DNA of 25,077 nt from a virus: positions 1 to 25,077 of the IMG/VR virus record IMGVR_UViG_3300024348_000225, one strand, 5' to 3'. The translations under genes were made by a program, and so were the position numbers. Numbering within the stretch: the first letter of the stretch is position 1; every line of letters begins with the position of its first letter. Below are positions 1 through 23,813 of the stretch, one piece after another. Under the pieces are notes generated by a model. The model was not told the origin of the DNA. It saw only the letters and a program-made list of their open reading frames with translations, and ran no database searches.

Positions 1-1156
1 CAGCAGCAAACATAGCAGCCTGTTGCTTATTGCTAAGGTTCTGCTTCTCAAACGCAGCAGATGTCTGTGCATCTTGCATAGCGATAGGCAGAGCGCTTTC
101 CATAGCTGCCTGTACGACAGCCTGACCCGCCATAGAAGAGGCAGACAAGCCACGAGCAGCCATAGCTGCACCAGCGGCTCTCATAGCCCCTGCAGCCCAT
201 GCTGGTGGGTCTTTACCTTCAAACTGCTCCATCAGTCCAGTAAGTTGACCTTGCACTGTAGCGTCTGTTGAGGGCGCTCCTGTAGCAGCTTCAAAGTTAA
301 TCTCTTTCTTGACACGCTCCATGTCTACAGTAGAGCCTTCAATCAGCTCACCCTCTTGTAGAGTACGAGGATCAGGTGCATCTACTGTCTGGGCTTTATC
401 AATCTGAGCAGCTTCAAGTTCTAGTTGTGCAAGATCTTGTGGAGACATAGTAGCTGCATCTACAGTAGCATCTTCAGATACAGTACCCTGCGCAGCTTCT
501 AAGCTGTCTAGTGCTTCAGATACAGCAGGAGTAGAGAGAGTTGTATCTACTGTTTCTGCTTTCAGATCGTCAGGTGCTTGGACATCAGCAGCGGTCTCGG
601 CAGTAGTACCACTCACCGTAGGTGCAGGATCTTTAAGCTGACCAGTAGCGGGATCAATAAGCTGTTCATCTGTTACTTCGTTTAGCTCTACATCTGTTTT
701 AGTTGTCATAGATGTAGGATCATTGATAGCACCAGAGACTAGCTCTGCACTGGTTGGTACTTCAGTAGCTTTAAATGCAGCTTCAGCAGAAGTCATACCC
801 TCTTGGGCTAGATTAACATTAGCCTCTGCAGAAGTAAGCGCATCTTGTAGTGTTGTGTCTTCAGGGTTTGCTGCCTGAGCATCTCTTGCAGCTTGTAGTG
901 CTGTTTCGGCGTCAGCATAAGACTGCTGTGCTGTATCTAGATCAGTAGCCATGCCCCCAGCAGCATAACCCTTTACATAACCACCATAAGCCATATTAAT
1001 TCGCTTCTCAGCTAATTCACTCATCTTGCCTACACGAGCAGCAGCACCAGGCTGAGAGGCTAAGAACTTAGCTTGCTCATCAGCTTGCATACCTTGCATT
1101 TCTGGGACAATCTTTCCCATCTGTTCAGGTGTAAAGCCACCAAATCGTTTAGCCAT
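1..1156 (-). CDS. Alanine-rich probable internal virion protein, N-terminal 385 residues (runs off left edge)
   Basis: The frame is open from the ATG at 1156 to the left edge with no stop, so the gene is truncated by the window. A good AAGGA ribosome site lies 9 bases upstream of the ATG. The first 50 residues (MAKRFGGFTPEQMGK...) are followed by a glycine-rich GGYVKGYAAGG segment at residues 58-68, a long Ala/Thr/Glu-rich, probably helical stretch, and near the edge an Ala/Met-rich segment containing AARGLSASSMAGQA. I recognise this style from virion proteins of marine podoviruses, where such proteins sit inside the head or tail and may be ejected with the DNA; I cannot name a specific family. 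It follows the lysis cassette after a 117-bp gap holding candidate promoter boxes. It has no membrane segment and no catalytic motif that I can see. Role is inferred from composition and position. Confidence 0.7.
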   Translation of the reverse strand, partial: MAKRFGGFTPEQMGKIVPEMQGMQADEQAKFLASQPGAAARVGKMSELAEKRINMAYGGYVKGYAAGGMATDLDTAQQSYADAETALQAARDAQAANPEDTTLQDALTSAEANVNLAQEGMTSAEAAFKATEVPTSAELVSGAINDPTSMTTKTDVELNEVTDEQLIDPATGQLKDPAPTVSGTTAETAADVQAPDDLKAETVDTTLSTPAVSEALDSLEAAQGTVSEDATVDAATMSPQDLAQLELEAAQIDKAQTVDAPDPRTLQEGELIEGSTVDMERVKKEINFEAATGAPSTDATVQGQLTGLMEQFEGKDPPAWAAGAMRAAGAAMAARGLSASSMAGQAVVQAAMESALPIAMQDAQTSAAFEKQNLSNKQQAAMFAA

Positions 1157-12740: not shown

Positions 12741-13799
12741 TTAAGCAGCGTTGTAGTTAGCTACAATGAGCGACTCTGGACGCAGGATCTTGCGACCATA
12801 GAGGTGCATACCACGTACAATGTCAGCAAAGCTGTTTGGATCACGGTAAGACTCAACTTTGTTGATCTGCTCAGCAGAAGCAACAGCATCGTCCTGACCA
12901 GCAACAATAACACCATAGTCAGTCTGCTGTGCAGCAGTACCGTTAGTACCAGCACCTGTGCCGAGGTATGGCAGGTTGTTGGATACATATACACGGAAGC
13001 CGTGGATGTTGTTGAGGATCAAACCGTTCTGGAGACCAGCACCACCGAAGTCGCCGTTAAGCATACGGGAGTCTTCGTCCTTGAGCATCTCTACGAACAC
13101 TGGATCAAGTACAACCCAGCGACCACGAGCGTCTACGTTCTGTGTGTCCATCTTACGAGCCATACGAGCAAGTACAGTCAATGGGGAAACAGTAGAAGAA
13201 GACAACGCAGTTGCGCCTGGAAGACGTGGAGCCAATGGGATAGCATCGCCAGCAGTAGCTGTACCAGAGATGGTCAAGTTACCAAAAGCAGTTGCATCAA
13301 GCTTGTTAGCAGCAAGAAGCTCGTCTGCACCAGCAGCAGCATTAGCTTTGTCGCCAGAAGCTACAGTGTTTGCAGCCCAAGCACCAGCACCACCAGCGTA
13401 ACCAGACAAGTAACCCAGTACTTCTTCGTCCATTGCGTCAGCCATTTTATAAGCTGCTTTGTCGGAAGCCATACGTGTGAAATCAACGTGCGAGAACTGC
13501 TCTTCGATGTCATCCATCTTGAATGCGAAGTAGTTAGCTTTGTCGATTGTCAGGGAGAAGTCTGTGTCATCCAACTGCTCAGCAGTGATGGATGTGTGAC
13601 GCTGCAGAGCTGTGACTGTTACGTCTGGCTCTTTTTGGATGCGAACAGTGTCGCCTTGGTTGGAGATTTCACCAAAGTAAGAGTTGTTGGTGATTGCGTT
13701 AGTAACAGCGGACTTGCGAAGTGCAATCTGTGCTGTTTTCGAGTAGATTACTGGGGACCAGGCTCCGTTGAAGCCGCCAGATGCAGATGTAATAGCCAT
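12741..13799 (-). CDS. Major capsid protein (HK97-type fold expected)
   Basis: The 352-residue protein starts MAITSASGGFNGAWSPVIYSKTAQIALRK. It contains GDTVRIQKEPDVTVTALQRHTSIT, the DKANYFAFKMDDIEEQFSHVD segment and a C-terminal NPNSFADIVRGMHLYGRKILRPESLIVANY-like end typical of phage coat proteins. Length is normal for the class. It follows the scaffold gene and is flanked by an unusually long structured leader and a strong hairpin, as expected for the most abundant virion protein. AAAGGA is 8 bases before the ATG. G+C at wobble positions looks higher than in tail genes, consistent with codon optimisation for high expression. Confidence 0.85.
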   Translation of the reverse strand: MAITSASGGFNGAWSPVIYSKTAQIALRKSAVTNAITNNSYFGEISNQGDTVRIQKEPDVTVTALQRHTSITAEQLDDTDFSLTIDKANYFAFKMDDIEEQFSHVDFTRMASDKAAYKMADAMDEEVLGYLSGYAGGAGAWAANTVASGDKANAAAGADELLAANKLDATAFGNLTISGTATAGDAIPLAPRLPGATALSSSTVSPLTVLARMARKMDTQNVDARGRWVVLDPVFVEMLKDEDSRMLNGDFGGAGLQNGLILNNIHGFRVYVSNNLPYLGTGAGTNGTAAQQTDYGVIVAGQDDAVASAEQINKVESYRDPNSFADIVRGMHLYGRKILRPESLIVANYNAA

Positions 13800-14034: not shown

Positions 14035-14955
14035 CTATCTTTTACTCATATCGTAAATAAACTTTCCTGATTGCTGCGCTTTGAAGATTTCCTCCATGCG
14101 GCTCTCATATTCTTTAATACTCATCCTTTCCACTGCTGATTCAGACAGGTAGTTAGAGGAGTCATTTGTATCAATTACACTACGACGAGACTTAACAGAA
14201 GATGCTGCCTCTTTGTCTGCGCTAGGCTTCTTAGTCTTAATACCCTTGTCAGCCTTGTAGAGATCCAACACACGAGCTACAGACTTAACATCGTCAGGCT
14301 CATCATAGAGTGCTGTCTGCGCCCAGCTAGGCTGTTCCTTAGCCCAGTCATGAAATGCATCATCATTACGAATGCTAGGGAAGTCTGGGTGCATAGAGAG
14401 TAGAGTAGCTTCAGCTTTCTCTTTACGAGCCTGAGTACGCATAGCTTCTACTTCTTTGACACGGCCTTCCAAGCCTTTCATCTTTTCAACAGCTTGCTCT
14501 TCAGCCAAGGCACGAATGAGGGCGTTAGCTTTAGGGTTCTGCTTAGCCCAAGCCTCAATCTCTTCCTTAGTGGTGACTTCTTCAAGAGAGGTTTGTGAGG
14601 AGTTGTTTAGGCGTGTCTTGAGTTCTTCAATCTCACGCTTATACTCTGTGTCTTTCTCTTGCATGTACTTACGAATGTCAGAGTAACGCTTTTTAAAGCT
14701 CTTCTCTTCTGCACTTAACCCTTCTTCTGAGGCTTCTTCTTGCTCTGGCTCTTCTGAGGTTCTGACTTCTTGGCTAACAACGGCTTCTTCCTCAGTTGCT
14801 TCTGTGGCTTCTTGCTGTACGCTATCATCTGTCTCTTCCTCAGTTACTAAGCCACTCTCTTTTAGAAGTGCTTGTAGTTCAGCCTCGTCACGATCTACAC
14901 GAGCTTGGTTGCGGCGATGTGAAACTGAATCAGTCTGCATTTGTGCTTCTGACAT
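14035..14955 (-). CDS. Scaffolding protein
   Basis: The 306-residue product is strongly charged and helical. It has an acidic Glu-rich first third (EEETDDSVQQEATEATEEEA), a long coiled-coil region (KKRYSDIRKYMQEKDTEYKREIEELK and later EKMKGLEGRVKEVEAMRTQARKEKAEA), and a conserved-looking HPDFPSIRNDDAFHDWAKEQP segment. The C-terminus is basic. This composition, size and position immediately before the capsid gene fit a phage scaffolding protein, which directs procapsid assembly and is then removed. AAAAGGA precedes the ATG. No protease domain is seen. Confidence 0.8.
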   Translation of the reverse strand: MSEAQMQTDSVSHRRNQARVDRDEAELQALLKESGLVTEEETDDSVQQEATEATEEEAVVSQEVRTSEEPEQEEASEEGLSAEEKSFKKRYSDIRKYMQEKDTEYKREIEELKTRLNNSSQTSLEEVTTKEEIEAWAKQNPKANALIRALAEEQAVEKMKGLEGRVKEVEAMRTQARKEKAEATLLSMHPDFPSIRNDDAFHDWAKEQPSWAQTALYDEPDDVKSVARVLDLYKADKGIKTKKPSADKEAASSVKSRRSVIDTNDSSNYLSESAVERMSIKEYESRMEEIFKAQQSGKFIYDMSKR

Positions 14956-15024: not shown

Positions 15025-17481
15025 TTACTTCTTTTTAGACTTCTTGCTGACATAGCCGCCATGCATGAAGCCGCCACCTCTGCTAATCTTATCGTCGTAG
15101 CTCTCTTTTTTATCACGGCTACCGTCTCCGCTTCTGCCTGAACTTGTGGCACCTGAAAGGCTATTGGTAGACTTAGTAGTAGTACTAGACGATGACGCAG
15201 GGAGTGAAGTAGTTGTGACTTTTGGGGCAGACCCGCTTGTTGCAGTAGCAGCTTCAGGTGATGACGCAGGGAGTGAAGGTGCTGGAGATGTGTCTTTCTT
15301 AGTCATATCTCTTCTGCCGCCGCCAACAGACTCAGTAATACCAATCTTGTTACCATCTTTATCTTTAGCGTCTACGCCCATAGAACCGTCGAAGCCAAGT
15401 AGGTCACCAAGATATGTATCACCAAAGTTCGTCTTACCATCACCGCTGGTATCAACTAGACCATCAGTCATGCTCTTACCGCCACCATAGATACCAGTAC
15501 CACGTACTACTTTATCCTTCATTGTATCTTTTTCATTAGCAGCAGTAAATCTAGACTTCATGTCCATAAGCTTTTTATACTCTGGATCTTTAGGGTCTGT
15601 AATAGCTGCAAGGCGGTTATCTAGAGCTTCCATAACTCTTTTGTCTTCTGCGTTACCTGCATAACTAATAAGAGCGCCCATAAGAGGGTTAATACCGCCA
15701 GCAATAGCTCTAACGCCTCTGCCTAATAGGCTATCTTTCTGATCAAGGTAAGTGCCGAACTCAGAAGCATCAGCAGTAGCCCAGTCCTTACGTTCTACAG
15801 GCTGTTGTTGGGTAGGAGTGTCACGATCTTTGCGTTCACGCTTTGGTGCAGCAGTTTCAGCAGCAGTCTCACCAGAAGCTGTATAACCTGCAGGGATAGA
15901 TGACATAGGCTTACCATTCACAAAGCGTACAGAGAGTGTCATACCTTCAGCATTGGTGTAAGTGCGATACTCTTGCCCAGAACCTTTTCCAGCAGTCGTA
16001 AATGCATCTGGAAACTCTTCCTGTAGTGCAGCCATATCAACGTCTACTACACCGCCATCAGCATAACCTTTAATGTAACCGCCCATGTTCATCTCAGGCT
16101 GTTCACCCATCTGTGAATCATCAATAGTTTGCAACTCACTGATATCAAATGGAAGTTCGTCTTCACCCATTTCCATACCTGAAGGTTCACCACCTACACG
16201 ACCACCCTCGTCTAGCTCTTGCCAGCCTTGCTTAGCTTGCATACGTAGATCTTCAAAGAACTTAACGCCATAGTAGCGTAGAACATCAGCAGGTACAATG
16301 TATTCACCTTCACTGAGGTTAGCTGGGATATCATCCCGAACCTCTTCAGGTCTAGCACCTAGAGGTACTTCATTACCAGATACTGGATCTACTTCTGCTC
16401 TAGAGGATTTAAACACTGTTTCCATTTGATCATCCATTGTTAATCCACCTTCTGCATATTGCTGTCTCTTTTTAACAAGGCCACCTTCAGCGAATCCTGT
16501 ATCATTAGTTTCTGTAGGTAGCTTACGTATTGTAACACCAGCAGCACCAAGCTTGTTGTTTGCTACTTCAAAACCATTACCTAAAACCTCTGTTATATAG
16601 GATCTAAGTTCAGGCTGAGTAAAACCTTTTTGATATGTATCCATAGATGTAATGATAGACATAGGCTCAGGTCCAGGAGTACCTTTAGCAGCCATTACAT
16701 CTCTACCACGAGTAGTTATTACAGCTACACCATTAGGTTCAAGAATACGGCCAATATCCATAACTATACCATCCCTAACCTCACGAGGTACTACGTTTAG
16801 AACATTTAGGTTTGTAACCTTTTTGTATGAGTTAGATGGAATATCTTCTGGAGAAATAAAATCAGGTGTAAAGTCTGCTTTTGGGAATGGCTCATATGTA
16901 TCAAAGCCTAGCTCTTTTTTAGATAAACCCAATCCTGCCCCAAAGTCTAGAGTTCTACCCTCCCCTACTGCATCATTTAAAAGGGTGTCTGCTTTTTTAT
17001 ATGTAGGTAACGTACCTGCAATCTGTGTTCTAGCTGCATTTTCAGCGGGAGGTAATTCTATATCTGGAAGGTCTACCTCTTTGGGTTTCAAGGAGATGTT
17101 ACCACCCATAGAACCCATAGCATTAGGATTGACCTCTACCCGCTTAGCTACATCAAATACTTCTTTAGCACCCTTCTTAATGGCGGCAGAAGCAGCATCA
17201 CCTAAGCCGGGGACAAGGCCTACAATAGTAGCCCCACCTAAAGCCCCTGCTAAGTAATAATTAGGCTCTTCTTTGTTAAGCTCATCATAAACATCTTTAG
17301 CTGCCATAGCATCACCAATAATAGGTGTCATCTCACCAACGAAGGTAGCTACATCTCTAAAGGTAGTCTCTGGTAGGGGTTCAGACTCAGAAGCAAGTTT
17401 GTTCGTATAGTTTGACCACTCCTCTTCAGTACTACCTAATAGTCCAGTCATTTGGTCTTTTACACCCGTATCATCAGCCAT
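15025..17481 (-). CDS. Multidomain 818-residue protein with a class I methyltransferase-like domain, probable virion/ejected protein
   Basis: Residues 40-110 hold hydrophobic Gly/Pro segments (FVGEMTPIIGDAMAAKDVYD and IVGLVPGLGDAASAAIKKGA) similar to the pretoxin-type linkers of polymorphic toxins. Residues about 155-322 look like a SAM-dependent methyltransferase: motif I TLDFGAGLG (177-185), then NLNVLNVVPREVRDGIV and ILEPNGVAVITTRG (224-258). Residues 330-477 carry FAEGGLVKK, YAEGGLTMDD, a SEGEYIVPADVLRYYGVKFFEDLR block (391-413) and MGGYIKGYADGG. An EF-hand/dockerin-like loop DTSGDGKTNFGD is at 677-688, a Ser/Thr/Pro linker with repeated SLPASS follows, and the C-terminus is basic (MHGGYVSKKSKKK). 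The start overlaps the preceding stop by 8 bp, with GAGG 9 bases upstream. Its place between portal and scaffold suggests an internal or ejected virion protein. Catalytic activity is unproven. Confidence 0.65.
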   Translation of the reverse strand: MADDTGVKDQMTGLLGSTEEEWSNYTNKLASESEPLPETTFRDVATFVGEMTPIIGDAMAAKDVYDELNKEEPNYYLAGALGGATIVGLVPGLGDAASAAIKKGAKEVFDVAKRVEVNPNAMGSMGGNISLKPKEVDLPDIELPPAENAARTQIAGTLPTYKKADTLLNDAVGEGRTLDFGAGLGLSKKELGFDTYEPFPKADFTPDFISPEDIPSNSYKKVTNLNVLNVVPREVRDGIVMDIGRILEPNGVAVITTRGRDVMAAKGTPGPEPMSIITSMDTYQKGFTQPELRSYITEVLGNGFEVANNKLGAAGVTIRKLPTETNDTGFAEGGLVKKRQQYAEGGLTMDDQMETVFKSSRAEVDPVSGNEVPLGARPEEVRDDIPANLSEGEYIVPADVLRYYGVKFFEDLRMQAKQGWQELDEGGRVGGEPSGMEMGEDELPFDISELQTIDDSQMGEQPEMNMGGYIKGYADGGVVDVDMAALQEEFPDAFTTAGKGSGQEYRTYTNAEGMTLSVRFVNGKPMSSIPAGYTASGETAAETAAPKRERKDRDTPTQQQPVERKDWATADASEFGTYLDQKDSLLGRGVRAIAGGINPLMGALISYAGNAEDKRVMEALDNRLAAITDPKDPEYKKLMDMKSRFTAANEKDTMKDKVVRGTGIYGGGKSMTDGLVDTSGDGKTNFGDTYLGDLLGFDGSMGVDAKDKDGNKIGITESVGGGRRDMTKKDTSPAPSLPASSPEAATATSGSAPKVTTTSLPASSSSTTTKSTNSLSGATSSGRSGDGSRDKKESYDDKISRGGGFMHGGYVSKKSKKK
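15191..15278 (-). repeat. 19-bp direct repeats coding SLPASS in the 818-residue protein
   Basis: The plus-strand 19-mer gatgacgcagggagtgaag occurs exactly at 15191-15209 and 15260-15278, 69 bp apart and in frame. It duplicates SLPASS in the Ser/Thr-rich linker. Confidence 0.85.
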
Positions 17482-17662
17482 TGACTACATCCCTCAAGTA
17501 TTTTAGTTTCCGTAAAGCTTGGATGTAACCCTGACATCTATATATCTCAGAAGTATCCGTCAAACTCTCTAAGGTTTTATGTGTACCAGAGATGCGCCCA
17601 TCTAACTCCTCAATAAGCGCATCCCAGATAGCTTTATCATTGACTAGCTTTTTAAGCGACAT
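17474..17662 (-). CDS. Small conserved-type helical protein between portal and the 818-residue protein
   Basis: From the ATG at 17662 the product is 62 residues, MSLKKLVNDKAIWDALIEELDGRIS... YRCQGYIQALRKLKYLRDVVNG, nearly all helical and without membrane segments. I recall proteins of this shape next to portal genes in other marine phages, with no known function. It overlaps the portal 3' end by 11 bp and the next start by 8 bp, so all three are probably translationally coupled. An upstream in-frame ATG at 17677 has GGAG very close to it; either start could be used. A portal-associated or packaging-accessory role is possible but unsupported. Confidence 0.6.
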   Translation of the reverse strand: MSLKKLVNDKAIWDALIEELDGRISGTHKTLESLTDTSEIYRCQGYIQALRKLKYLRDVVNG

Positions 17663-19754
17663 TGCCACTGAACCCATCTTCTCCTGGTGCTGGAGCAGTA
17701 CCTACACCTATTTGTGAACCACCCCCACCAGAAGAGTCCTGAACGCCCTGTGGACCCTGTCCCTGTGGCGCTGGGCCACCTGCAGGAGGTTGCTGTGCAG
17801 ATTGGAACCCTTTCAGGATCTCTGCCTGAATAGCTGCATCAGTAATAGAGTTGGTAACCTTAGCTGGGTCAAGATCCATAGACTTAGCAATCTCACGAAT
17901 GATGTAGTCCATCTTAGCGAAAGGAGCCAAGACAGGGTTCTGTGCTACCTGCAAGAACTGCATCAAGCGCTGGGAGCGTACTTCGTTAGCCATGAGGCTC
18001 TCTGTACCTGAAGCATTAACTTCCAAGTCACCACGAATGCTAGGATCAAAGTCAAACTGCATGTTGAATGCAAAGAAAGACTTACCTAGTGGTTTGATCA
18101 GGTAGTCATCTACGTTCTTAACTACAGTGCGGATAGAACCGTTAGCTGCAGACATAAGCATAGAGATACCAGAAGCAGTACGACCTACACCAGACACACC
18201 AGTCTGACCATGTGCAAAGCTAGGGAAGCCTGTAGACTCATCAGCCAGTACACGAGCCTTATCAAAAAGCTGCATGTTCTCTTGTGCTACGTTAGGGAAC
18301 TTCGTACCAAAGATAGCCTGTCCTGGAGCGCCACCTTGACGCCTGAAGATCTTTCCTGGGTAGATAGACATATCTTGTCCTGGAACTAGGTTAGACTCAT
18401 CTACTTCAATGATCAAGTTACCCGACATTGCAGCGTTATCAATAGCCATACGCATAAAGCCGTTCATCAACGTCTGAGTATCGTCCATGTTCTCAGCAAT
18501 ACCTACACCGAAGAAGCTGTAAGGGTTATGCTCATATGGTACGGCGTAGTAAGGAATACGTGCAGGTTTGAATGGGTTAAGCACAAGACGGATCACTTCG
18601 CCGTTACACACCCATACGTTAGCATTAAGCTCATCAAGATCTTTATACTCTTTAGGGATCTTGATGCCATTCTCTTCAAGAATATCAACATCTACAAAAC
18701 CCCAGAACTCTAGGACTTCCCAACGCTCTGACTCTGGTTGAGTAGAGGCATCTTCCATAGCCTGTTCCCAGTGCTTCTGGATGTAGTCAGCACCTCTATC
18801 AATAGCTGTACCGATAGCCTCTTTCATGAAGTATGGGCGAGACTTCAATGCACGTAGCTGTGTGCGAGACATCTTGTGACGCTCTACAGTATACTCTGCA
18901 TCTGCCATTGATGATGCTTCTGGGTCTGGGTAGAAGTTCCATACAGAGACATGACTACACTCAGGTACAGTCTTAATGAGAGGCTCATAGTTGCCCTCTT
19001 CGTCCCAGTTAGGATACTCCTTATCTACAGCAAATGGACCCTTCATAACACCAGTGCCAAGCAAAGCCATCTCAAACGCCATAGAGCGAAGGTGAACAGA
19101 AGCGCCAGACTCTTGAAGCTGGTCGTGGATCTTCTTTTCCATCTTCTTAGCTGCAACCATAGCTGGGTGGAATGTTACAGTAGTAGCTGTAGTACCTACA
19201 CCCTCAATGATCTTATCAGAAATAGGTGCAAGCTTTTCTTTTAGTGGGCCAAGACGATCCTTCAATGAAGTAAGTGTCTCGCCGGGCATAAGCTTAGTAT
19301 CTGGGCCAATCAAGTAAGGCTTAGATGCTGGATCAGAGGTAACAGCTTTAAGGGCGTCACCAGCCTGTTCCGCATTAGGATCAATGTTGATATGAGCAGA
19401 TTCTACGACACCATCAGGTAGAATAGAAGGATCTACACTCATTGGGAACCTGTTGTTACCAAACAGTACGTCAATGATCTGACCATAAGCAGCAAGTGTC
19501 TTAGTTTTAGTCACCTTTACAAACACACGAGACTTCTCAGTGTCAGTGAACTTAACATCTGGACCATACAAGCCACGATAGTTGCGATAAGCTCTAAGCC
19601 AACGCTCTTCATCGCCTAGACGAGCATCTTCTGCTCTAGTGAACCTGTCAGTAACGTATGAAACTACACTACTTGCTGTAAATAGAGTGTCCTTACCGTC
19701 CTCTGCTGCAACAACATCGTCCGTCTCGAACATCATTTCATCATTTTCTGCCAT
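17652..19754 (-). CDS. Portal protein (large, podovirus/P22-like type)
   Basis: The 700-residue product starts MAENDEMMFETDD. It has FTRAEDARLGDEERWLRAYRNYRG early, the Trp- and Asp-rich VWNFYPDPEASSMADAEYTVERHKMSRTQLRAL segment in the middle, and RIPYYAVPYEHNPYSFFGVGIAENMDDTQTLMNGFMRMAIDNAAM, characteristic of large portals. The last 60 residues are a Gly/Pro/Gln-rich tail (PPAGGPAPQGQGPQG). Twelve copies form the ring through which DNA enters and leaves the head. The gene starts 2 bp after the large terminase stop, the standard terminase-portal order. At 700 residues it is longer than siphovirus portals and near P22 gp1. Confidence 0.85.
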   Translation of the reverse strand: MAENDEMMFETDDVVAAEDGKDTLFTASSVVSYVTDRFTRAEDARLGDEERWLRAYRNYRGLYGPDVKFTDTEKSRVFVKVTKTKTLAAYGQIIDVLFGNNRFPMSVDPSILPDGVVESAHINIDPNAEQAGDALKAVTSDPASKPYLIGPDTKLMPGETLTSLKDRLGPLKEKLAPISDKIIEGVGTTATTVTFHPAMVAAKKMEKKIHDQLQESGASVHLRSMAFEMALLGTGVMKGPFAVDKEYPNWDEEGNYEPLIKTVPECSHVSVWNFYPDPEASSMADAEYTVERHKMSRTQLRALKSRPYFMKEAIGTAIDRGADYIQKHWEQAMEDASTQPESERWEVLEFWGFVDVDILEENGIKIPKEYKDLDELNANVWVCNGEVIRLVLNPFKPARIPYYAVPYEHNPYSFFGVGIAENMDDTQTLMNGFMRMAIDNAAMSGNLIIEVDESNLVPGQDMSIYPGKIFRRQGGAPGQAIFGTKFPNVAQENMQLFDKARVLADESTGFPSFAHGQTGVSGVGRTASGISMLMSAANGSIRTVVKNVDDYLIKPLGKSFFAFNMQFDFDPSIRGDLEVNASGTESLMANEVRSQRLMQFLQVAQNPVLAPFAKMDYIIREIAKSMDLDPAKVTNSITDAAIQAEILKGFQSAQQPPAGGPAPQGQGPQGVQDSSGGGGSQIGVGTAPAPGEDGFSGNVA

Positions 19755-19756
19755 AC

Positions 19757-21352
19757 TTAGTATCCAAATGTTGTGTCACTAGCCTGAAAACCAGTGCGTT
19801 GTGTTGCAGGATCGTAATCCCATATGCTTTTGCTGCGTGGTCTAGTCATAATACCATAGCGCAAGGCATCATAGAGGTGGTCTTCTGAGTTTGTATCTAC
19901 ATCCTCTGGATTACGCTTATCTAGAGGTATAGATGGGATTTGAGCTATAGTATGAGTACAATTGCTAGTGAATACGAGACGTGGGGCTTCTGTATATTCA
20001 TCAACCTGTAAACGTCTGTGTATTTCGTTCTTACCTGAGACACGAGAGCCTCTAGATCTATCAGAAGGCCTCCATCTACAGCCCTTCATGTTCATCTGCT
20101 CTGCAAGGCTAGGACCAGTATCACCCCTGTTATGCCACAAGGAGGAGTCAAGAACACCATATAGTATCTTACCATCACCCGCTTCTAAGTCTAAGATCAT
20201 ATCTGCTAGATCAGAAGCAGTAACTTTAGAACAGTACAACTCTCTATACACGATAAGTTGCTCAGCAGGTGATACAGCAAACCACAAAACACCAGTGAAG
20301 GAACCATACCCGTAGTCACAGGCTCTAAACCGAGGCCAAGACTCTGGAATGTCAAAAGCTTCTACTACATGCTTGTTCCTGTCAAACTCAGGAAACGCTG
20401 CACCCTCGTTAATATCCCAGTTACCCTCTAGAAGCTGCTTACGCTGATGCTCAGGAAGAGACAAAAGCATAGCTTCATAGTCACCAGAGTCTGACAGATA
20501 AGGGTTATCAAACAAACTTGCAGGAATAAACCTACGCTTAAATAGAGGCTCACCTTCTTTACTGTGGCCTTTAGGAAACGTAATGGTTTCACCAGACTCA
20601 ATATCCGTAGCCCAGAAAGCTTTACCAGAAGGGCTAGGGTCAATAAACATCTTCTTAACCCAACTATGCCCAGCGCCACCAGGGTTAGTTGTACCTCGCA
20701 TATACAAACCTAACTCTTTACTAGAACTACGTAGTCGTGAACGCATATAATTCCAAGCGTAGGGAGTACCCCACTGAGTAAGTTCGTCGAAGCCAATCCA
20801 GTTAAACGCCTGACCTTGGTAGCGCATAACGTCCATGTCTTTATCCAAGTAAGACATCCAGAGTCTACCACCACGAGGTGAAGTCCATTGTGACTTGCGC
20901 TCTGACCACTTAATGCCAGGAATAGCCTTGGGATATAGTTCTTGGCTCTTCTGGATAAGCTCTCGTAGTTCTTCCGTAGTATGTCGTACTAGCAGACCAG
21001 AGAAGTTAGGGTCATTGAGGCCGTGTAAGGGGTCTGCAAGCATCGCATAAGACTTTCCGCCACCCGCAGCACCCCCGTAGAGTACTTCACGCTCAGAGGA
21101 GCTTAGAAAGGCTGTCTGTGGCCCTGCGTTAGGCTTGAATACAACGTCCTGTGCATCTTCGATGTTATACTCTGCAGATTTAACTTCAGCGTAAACGGTT
21201 TCAACCTGCTTAGGTGTCTTCCCCTCCTGTGATGGAGTAGGCTCCGATGTTTTGCTCTTCGAGTTTTTTGATCTCGTGTAGCGTTTCTTCGAGGCGCTTG
21301 GCAAGCTTGCGTTTAATTGCAGCAGTTTTTTTACGTCTTCGCTCAATTTCAA
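19757..21352 (-). CDS. terL: Terminase large subunit
   Basis: The 531-residue protein has an ATPase with Walker A GGAAGGGKS (residues 93-101), Walker B NWIGFDE (184-190) and coupling motif TTNPGG (221-226). A nuclease domain follows with acidic residues in RACDYGYG (D346), GVLDSS (D402) and EDHLYDALRYG (D491 or D495). It drives DNA into the procapsid through the portal and cuts concatemers. There is no ATG before the Walker A lysine (the first is at residue 104), so translation must begin at a TTG: either 21352, only three codons after an in-frame stop, or 21346. GAAGAGAG lies just upstream. The first 48 codons overlap the preceding gene in another frame. The basic N-terminus (SKKRYTRSKNSKSK) may be disordered. 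Confidence 0.92.
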   Translation of the reverse strand: MKLSEDVKKLLQLNASLPSASKKRYTRSKNSKSKTSEPTPSQEGKTPKQVETVYAEVKSAEYNIEDAQDVVFKPNAGPQTAFLSSSEREVLYGGAAGGGKSYAMLADPLHGLNDPNFSGLLVRHTTEELRELIQKSQELYPKAIPGIKWSERKSQWTSPRGGRLWMSYLDKDMDVMRYQGQAFNWIGFDELTQWGTPYAWNYMRSRLRSSSKELGLYMRGTTNPGGAGHSWVKKMFIDPSPSGKAFWATDIESGETITFPKGHSKEGEPLFKRRFIPASLFDNPYLSDSGDYEAMLLSLPEHQRKQLLEGNWDINEGAAFPEFDRNKHVVEAFDIPESWPRFRACDYGYGSFTGVLWFAVSPAEQLIVYRELYCSKVTASDLADMILDLEAGDGKILYGVLDSSLWHNRGDTGPSLAEQMNMKGCRWRPSDRSRGSRVSGKNEIHRRLQVDEYTEAPRLVFTSNCTHTIAQIPSIPLDKRNPEDVDTNSEDHLYDALRYGIMTRPRSKSIWDYDPATQRTGFQASDTTFGY

Positions 21353-22941: not shown

Positions 22942-23217
22942 TTAACGCTTCTTAGATGGAGGTACAGAAGCACCACAGTTAGACTTCTTAACCATACCAC
23001 CTTTGTTGAAGTTACCTCTTGTAGGTGCAGGCTTACCTCCCGCTCCACGAGGCTTAGGACCACCTGCCGCTGCTGCCATACCAGGGTTAGGAGCAGGCAC
23101 AGCAGACTGAGGGGCTGCGCCACGAGGCTTAGGTCCAGCTCCACGAGGTGCCTGAGGGGATACACGAGGGTTAGTTGTTCTAGGTACTGCGGGTGTGTTT
23201 GGTCTTTGGATTCTCAT
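22942..23217 (-). CDS. Proline/arginine-rich basic protein with PKPRGA repeats
   Basis: The 91-residue product is largely disordered: Pro, Arg, Gly and Ala dominate. PKPRGA occurs at residues 29-34 and 54-59, with related QAPRGAG before. The C-terminus FNKGGMVKKSNCGASVPPSKKR carries the GG-x-VKK motif found in the 818-residue protein. AGGA is 7 bases before the ATG. Very basic with no acidic residues visible, so it may bind nucleic acid or an acidic virion surface. Function unknown. Confidence 0.55.
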   Translation of the reverse strand: MRIQRPNTPAVPRTTNPRVSPQAPRGAGPKPRGAAPQSAVPAPNPGMAAAAGGPKPRGAGGKPAPTRGNFNKGGMVKKSNCGASVPPSKKR

Positions 23218-23540: not shown

Positions 23541-23813
23541 TCACTTCTTCCCTGCTTTGCTGTTACGGGGGATACTTCTGTTCTTAGCTGGTGTCTGTAC
23601 ACGTAGGTTAGACTTAGTATTGTTACGTGGGTTGCCATCCTTGTGGTCAACATCCTTGCCGTCACCCTTAGAGACTAGGCCACCCTTCTCCATAGCATAA
23701 CGTGCCTTCTTACGAGAGCGGTTATCAGCCATACGCTTAGGCGACTTGTCATACTTACCTTCACCACTCATGGTGTAGTTACGATTAGTCTTCTTCTTGG
23801 GGGGTGTCGGCAT
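23541..23813 (-). CDS. Tiny HNH-like protein
   Basis: The 90-residue product is Lys/Arg-rich. It contains DVDHKDGNPRNN (residues 54-65) followed by NLRVQTPAKNRS (69-80), the core of the HNH_3-type endonuclease motif (DHxxGNxxxN...NLR...T..xN). The usual N-terminal strand of the fold is short or missing, so it may be a minimal nuclease or an inactive DNA-binding derivative. HNH proteins next to terminases can assist DNA cleavage during packaging, and this gene is six genes upstream of the terminase pair. MEKGGLVSKG at 41-50 is another copy of the GG-Lys motif. GGAAGAG precedes the ATG. Confidence 0.65.
   Translation of the reverse strand: MPTPPKKKTNRNYTMSGEGKYDKSPKRMADNRSRKKARYAMEKGGLVSKGDGKDVDHKDGNPRNNTKSNLRVQTPAKNRSIPRNSKAGKK

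What the first reader, a model, noticed from the sequence alone, without database searches (positions are those of the whole stretch)
15025..17481. Virion-module protein combining pretoxin-like, methyltransferase-like and EF-hand-like parts
The sequence shows GDxxxA/GLVPGLGDAA segments, a DFGAGLG motif I with matching later strands, several GG-Lys motifs and a DxSxDGxxNxxD loop in one 818-residue product between portal and scaffold. Established knowledge: phage and conjugative-element polyvalent proteins string enzymatic domains together and are delivered with DNA, and polymorphic toxins carry pretoxin linkers of this look. Inference: this may be an ejected multidomain effector that methylates nucleic acid or protein early in infection. 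A methyltransferase lodged in the head module is unusual and is the best candidate here for an undescribed system.
Basis: partly seen in the sequence, partly recalled or inferred. Interest (0 to 1): 0.72.

Follow-up and report, generated by a model that had tools for sequence, protein, structure and literature searches.

The report
Swappable methyltransferase in phage head gene
A head-region gene of an abundant kind of marine virus of bacteria carries a real, conserved methyltransferase as an exchangeable payload that near-identical viruses replace with other domains, as expected of an effector delivered into the host with the viral DNA (delivery itself is not shown).

Summary
The 818-residue product is real (minus strand, between portal and scaffold of an HMO-2011-type podophage). 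Residues 135-326 are a genuine class I SAM-methyltransferase: AF2 pLDDT 93 on 99 relatives, 638 PDB fold matches at E<=1e-3, Methyltransf_23 in 61/99 relatives, invariant D-x-G-x-G-x-G, E and N residues down to 25% identity, dN/dS about 0.03-0.19. It is not the EcoKI/TaqI DNA-adenine type known from polyvalent proteins. It is almost virus-restricted and lies beside the portal gene in many unrelated phages, solo or fused to cell-wall hydrolases, lysozyme, zincin-like peptidases, ParB-like and ADP-ribosyltransferase domains. The new point is the locus: a constant C-terminal domain plus a payload slot just after the start codon. Near-identical phages (90-98% DNA identity) differ mainly in payload, and one pair, each state seen in two or more metagenomes, swaps this methyltransferase for a remotely related one at the domain edges. 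The pretoxin-like segment is a conserved adapter before the swapped cassette, but matches no pretoxin profile; the EF-hand-like loop is confined to near-identical strains and GG-Lys motifs are unexplained. Virion packaging, ejection and substrate are inferred. Best reading: a new variant of phage polyvalent/internal-head effector proteins.

The parts
15025..17481 (-). slot gene: 818-aa payload-carrying protein
   Evidence: full-length relatives in IMG/VR
17131..17364 (-). residues 40-117: conserved pretoxin-like adapter (GDAMAAKD ... GLVPGLGDAASAAIKKGAKEVFDVAKRVEV)
   Evidence: shared by slot proteins with different cassettes behind it; no PF14449 match
17098..17130 (-). residues 118-128: junction motif NPNAMGSMGGN, just before the exchangeable cassette
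16504..17079 (-). residues 135-326: class I SAM-methyltransferase cassette (MTase-A)
   Evidence: AF2 pLDDT 93.1, Foldseek PDB, Methyltransf_23 in 61/99 relatives
16927..16950 (-). motif I LDFGAGLG (res 178-185)
   Evidence: D179, G181, G183, G185 invariant in 25/25 cluster representatives
16786..16812 (-). post-strand-4 motif NLNVLNVVP (res 224-232)
   Evidence: V227 and N229 invariant in 25/25; no NPPY
16162..16410 (-). residues 358-440: constant C-terminal domain (DPVSGNEVP..VRDDIPA.LSEGEY.VPADV)
   Evidence: conserved in the HMO-2011-type isolates examined; weak tape-measure PHROG match at 382-415
15028..16014 (-). residues 490-818: variable, Ser/Thr/Lys-rich C-terminal region
   Evidence: low-confidence model
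15418..15453 (-). EF-hand-like loop DTSGDGKTNFGD (res 677-688), probably incidental
17652..19754 (-). portal gene (context)
   Evidence: SU10_portal 1.3e-25; phrog_332, phrog_1216
14035..14955 (-). scaffold-position gene (context)
   Evidence: phrog_13678 6e-51, no assigned function; lies directly before the capsid gene
12741..13799 (-). major capsid gene (context)
   Evidence: phrog_267 major head protein 5.8e-55

Best explanation
The gene encodes a polyvalent-type effector carrier of the phage head module. Its constant C-terminal domain (res 358-440) is likely the part that holds it in the particle; between the start codon and that domain is a slot for exchangeable payloads. Here the payload is an adapter segment plus an active class I methyltransferase. 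The protein is packaged with the genome and leaves through the portal early in infection, where the methyltransferase modifies a host (or incoming-phage) molecule, probably to blunt a defence or help takeover; rivalry with host defences would drive the swapping. Shown by computation: methyltransferase fold, conserved active-site-type residues, purifying selection, portal-adjacent synteny, fusion to other effector and peptidoglycan domains, cassette swaps. Inferred: packaging, role of the C-terminal domain, ejection, substrate, benefit.
For: Fold: AF2 pLDDT 93.1, pTM 0.88; 638 PDB matches at E<=1e-3, top METTL6, mostly SAM-methyltransferases among the listed best; Methyltransf_23 in 61/99. Activity: T152, T157, Y161, K163, D179, G181, G183, G185, E197, P198, N229, R236, G251, R258, Q284, G286 invariant over 25 clusters down to 25% identity; dN/dS about 0.03-0.19 (several dS values saturated). 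Location: beside the portal in unrelated phages, fused or solo. Company: SleB hydrolase and DUF7178 (CRP-3), ParB_N (L013, weak), DUF6782 peptidase (L026), lysozyme (HTVC103P, L175), ART-PolyVal (L108), head-protease-like region (Myrna gp97). Payload slot: L016/L018 versus L295, 96% DNA identity either side of a swapped methyltransferase, each state in 3 and 2 metagenomes; L264/L265, L249/L254, L245/L246, L282/L284 and others differ in payload at 90-98% upstream identity. Patchiness: by portal the nearest isolates (CRP-207, CRP-2, CRP-603; 77-81%) lack the domain, while CRP-3/CRP-738 (54-57%) have it at 69-72%.
Against: No virion proteomics found for this group, so packaging and ejection are unproven. 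37 of 64 complete slot proteins from the C-domain scan carry almost no payload, so payloads are dispensable. Solo methyltransferases by the portal could act on phage proteins during assembly. Full-length model is poor (pLDDT 40), so the C-terminal domain's role is guesswork. Swaps prove variability, not host-directed function.
Confidence: 0.6

Rival explanations
1. The methyltransferase works during assembly: it methylates portal, scaffold or other virion proteins, and lies in the head module for that reason, without being ejected.
For: Solo versions sit directly beside the portal gene in MJing1 and in L226, L200, L129, L082, L197.
Against: Fusions to cell-wall hydrolases, lysozyme, ART-PolyVal and ParB-like domains fit delivery better; close relatives with similar portal and capsid lack the domain, so the virion does not need it.
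Confidence: 0.2
2. It is an injected nucleic-acid methyltransferase that protects incoming phage DNA against restriction, as DarB of phage P1 does.
For: Phage polyvalent proteins carry DNA-adenine methylases and DarB is a P1 head component (PMC5512222); best single fold match METTL6 is an RNA methyltransferase.
Against: No NPP(Y/F) motif, no target-recognition domain or helicase partner seen; nearest folds are generic small-molecule, protein or tRNA methyltransferases.
Confidence: 0.12
3. A structural or ejection-conduit protein in which the domains are passive ballast, the methyltransferase fold being a dead relic.
For: Large low-confidence, variable-length regions; many slot proteins have almost no payload.
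Against: Invariant motif I and polar residues over 25 clusters, dN/dS far below 1, replacement by another methyltransferase-like cassette.
Confidence: 0.08

Closest known systems
Phage polyvalent proteins (Iyer et al. 2017, PMC5512222)
   Same: Multidomain, encoded among late/virion genes, mixes unrelated enzymatic domains (zincin-like peptidases, ParB-like, ART, lysozyme, PF07486 hydrolase) predicted to be injected.
   Different: The methylase reported there is an EcoKI/TaqI-type DNA-adenine enzyme with NPP(Y/F), usually fused to LPD36 and a SWI2/SNF2 helicase; this one is a different, compact Methyltransf_23-like family with NVLNV, and sits in a slot with a constant C-terminal domain.
T4 internal head proteins IPI-IPIII and Alt (PMC9026906)
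   Same: Works like: variable, mostly non-essential head proteins; Alt is an ejected ADP-ribosyltransferase and IPI an anti-restriction protein.
   Different: T4 uses a short N-terminal capsid-targeting sequence removed by gp21; here the constant part is a C-terminal domain and the payload is N-terminal; homology was not tested.
Polymorphic toxins with pretoxin domains (general knowledge)
   Same: Works like: a constant adapter segment precedes an exchangeable enzymatic cassette.
   Different: No PF14449 match; the cassette is internal, not C-terminal; no immunity gene was looked for.
Class I SAM-methyltransferases, Methyltransf_23/11/25 (Pfam)
   Same: Fold, motif I, acidic residue after strand 2.
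   Different: Window protein itself is below Pfam cut-offs; own signature T-x4-T-x3-Y-x-K, NVLNV, QKG; almost confined to viruses.

Membership tests
Class I SAM-methyltransferase | Rossmann-type methyltransferase fold | tested here: met
   AF2 pLDDT 93.1, Foldseek PDB best 8e-9, 638 matches at E<=1e-3
Class I SAM-methyltransferase | Motif I glycine loop and acidic residue after strand 2 | tested here: met
   D179/G181/G183/G185 and E197 invariant in 25/25 clusters
Class I SAM-methyltransferase | SAM binding and methyl transfer | not testable with these tools
   needs bench assay; no superposition on a SAM complex was made
Phage polyvalent protein | Two or more unrelated domains in one polypeptide | tested here: met
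   window: methyltransferase, adapter, constant C-domain; relatives add SleB, ART-PolyVal, ParB_N, peptidase, lysozyme
Phage polyvalent protein | Encoded among virion/late genes of a terminase-portal phage | tested here: met
   between portal and scaffold-position gene; portal neighbour in diverse phages
Phage polyvalent protein | Packaged and injected | not testable with these tools
   no proteomics found
DarB-type DNA-adenine methylase | NPP(Y/F) motif after strand 4 | tested here: not met
   NLNVLNVVP there instead
Pretoxin (PF14449, PT-TG) | Profile match | tested here: not met
   no match at E<=10; DUF4112 at 0.013, below cut-off
EF-hand protein | Profile match and conservation of the loop | tested here: not met
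   EF-hand_5 no match; loop confined to near-identical strains at that place
Dnd-related methyltransferase TIGR04096 | Score above cut-off 150 bits | tested here: not met
   13.2 bits over 26 residues

The most novel reading that the evidence does not exclude
HMO-2011-type marine phages carry a dedicated payload slot in a head-module gene: a constant C-terminal carrier domain loads interchangeable N-terminal effectors into the particle, and methyltransferases of two remotely related families substitute for one another there, a phage counterpart of polymorphic toxins used on the host at the moment of DNA entry.
Probability: 0.4. Interest if true: 0.8.

Novelty: new variant of a known kind. Interest (0 to 1): 0.64.

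Why it matters
HMO-2011-type phages are described as a dominant, widely distributed marine group (PMC9038755), yet the text search of that comparative study found no mention of a methyltransferase. If the slot is an effector launcher, comparing payloads between near-identical phages gives a ready list of undescribed early-infection effectors, and cultured phages that have the domain (CRP-3, CRP-738) and lack it (CRP-603, CRP-207) make packaging, ejection and substrate directly testable. A head-borne methyltransferase that is not a DNA-adenine enzyme would add a new activity to ejected phage proteins.

Tried and rejected
DNA-adenine methylase: no NPPY. Pretoxin family: no PF14449 match. EF-hand: no profile match and confined to near-identical strains. 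GG-Lys as a general head-protein signal: not seen in CRP-603 or CRP-3. Dnd-related methylase: 13 bits. Full-length structure: pLDDT 40, not used. ART in the L024 insert: no PF18760 match. Methyltransf_23 in L295/L301 (MTase-B): no match, so MTase-B rests on profile comparison and motif. PDB search with the constant C-domain: nothing significant. Chimeric assembly as cause of the L016/L295 swap: unlikely, both junctions recur in several metagenomes. Sequence search of the whole protein in PDB: nothing. Literature searches for virion proteomics or for this slot found none.

Full report
OBSERVATION. The finding's coordinates hold one 818-aa ORF, on the minus strand. The window is a 25,077-base virus record with portal (17652-19754), large terminase (19757-21352), a scaffold-position gene (14035-14955) and capsid gene (12741-13799), all minus. 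Nearest named phages are the HMO-2011-type Roseobacter phages CRP-3, CRP-207, CRP-738, CRP-603 and HMO-2011 itself; [quoted passage not shown]

METHYLTRANSFERASE. The window protein alone is below Pfam cut-offs, but a profile of relatives matches a methyltransferase in the PDB (8ys9, 3.6e-4) and 61 of 99 relatives match Methyltransf_23. AF2 on 99 sequences gave pLDDT 93.1; Foldseek found 638 PDB entries at E<=1e-3, led by METTL6 and small-molecule methyltransferases, TM about 0.5-0.6, and the phage CRP-3 protein in the viral library (identified by its 1,292-aa length and 69% identity). Over 25 cluster representatives, down to 25% identity, motif I, E197, N229, R236, R258, Q284 and an N-terminal T152/T157/Y161/K163 set do not vary. 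dN/dS is about 0.03-0.19, some with saturated dS. So the enzyme is very probably active (inference). The DNA-adenine signature is absent.

DISTRIBUTION. Scans found 296 stretches in viral contigs (best 80 kept), 3 loci in 84,980 species genomes, all MAG contigs, one beside a portal gene, 12 of 50,697 phage records and none in plasmids. The genome scan used one strict pattern, so cellular relatives may be missed. Proteins range from 193 to 2,823 aa. The gene lies beside a portal gene in many loci, including solo forms 4-12 nt upstream of the portal (L226, L200, L082, L197) and next to it in Microcystis phage MJing1. Fusion partners: Cell Wall Hydrolase and DUF7178 (CRP-3), ParB_N weakly (L013), DUF6782 peptidase (L026), phage lysozyme (HTVC103P, L175), ART-PolyVal (L108), head-protease-like region (Myrna gp97), CTP_transf_like (L099), DUF6321 (L098). 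HExxH zincin-type motifs occur in 8 slot proteins, two with this domain.

PAYLOAD SLOT. All HMO-2011-type isolates examined keep a C-terminal domain DPVSGNEVP...VRDDIPA.LSEGEY.VPADV. N-terminal content differs: CRP-2 a cell-wall hydrolase, CRP-3/CRP-738 this methyltransferase (in CRP-738 the constant domain is on a second ORF), CRP-603 and HMO-2011 almost none, CRP-207/CRP-9 a shared unidentified module; CRP-13 and CRP-345 carry a separate class I methyltransferase gene, unrelated by BLAST, directly downstream of the slot gene. By portal the window phage is closest to phages without the domain. In 64 complete slot ORFs fetched through the C-domain, 37 have payloads of at most 35 aa and 27 have 130-1,643 aa, none of them MTase-A (nearest 80 matches only, and loci already fetched through the methyltransferase are counted apart); 63 payloads of at least 130 aa form 17 clusters by a mechanical criterion. 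Pairs with 90-98% upstream DNA identity differ in payload, with breakpoints at or near the start codon and shortly before the C-domain. The clearest is L016/L018 versus L295: protein 95-100% identical on both sides of a segment that is MTase-A in one and a different NVLNVI protein in the other. That second cassette is remotely related to MTase-A (hhalign probability 93%, E 3e-7), so the swap keeps the likely activity type. Each state's junctions recur in 3 and 2 metagenomes.

MECHANISM. Phage polyvalent proteins are proposed to be packaged and injected (PMC5512222); T4 ejects Alt and IP proteins, which vary among relatives (PMC9026906). By analogy this gene is best read as a head-borne carrier of exchangeable effectors with a methyltransferase payload. 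Packaging, ejection and substrate remain inferred. Rivals are listed in their field.

LIMITS.

Noticed in passing
window 2-1156 (-) and 15025-17481 (-): Two different proteins share almost the same motif: GGYVKGYAAGG and GGYIKGYADGG; small ORFs 22942-23217 and 23541-23813 carry GGMVKK and GGLVSK. Not general in CRP-603 or CRP-3.
   Followed up: partly
window 17474-17677 (-): A 67-aa ORF overlaps the end of the portal gene and the start of the slot gene; isolates have a small gene in the same place.
   Followed up: no
L233:7719-8423, L234:6249-6944: CRP-345 gp61 and CRP-13 gp54: a separate Methyltransf_25-type gene directly after the slot gene, unrelated by BLAST to the window's domain.
   Followed up: partly
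L036, L042, L035, L155, L216, L229: DUF7178 (unknown function) recurs in slot-type proteins of diverse phages, often with the methyltransferase.
   Followed up: no
L036 slot protein residues 1075-1086; also L027, L216: Canonical-looking EF-hand loop (DINDDGKLSEYE) in the CRP-3 group, at a different place from the window's loop.
   Followed up: no
L040:6810-10445: Myrna gp97, annotated tape measure, has a head-maturation-protease-like N-terminus plus this methyltransferase, between portal and capsid genes.
   Followed up: partly
window 23541-23813 (-): HNH endonuclease-type small protein (HNH_3, 1.9e-7) upstream of the packaging genes.
   Followed up: no
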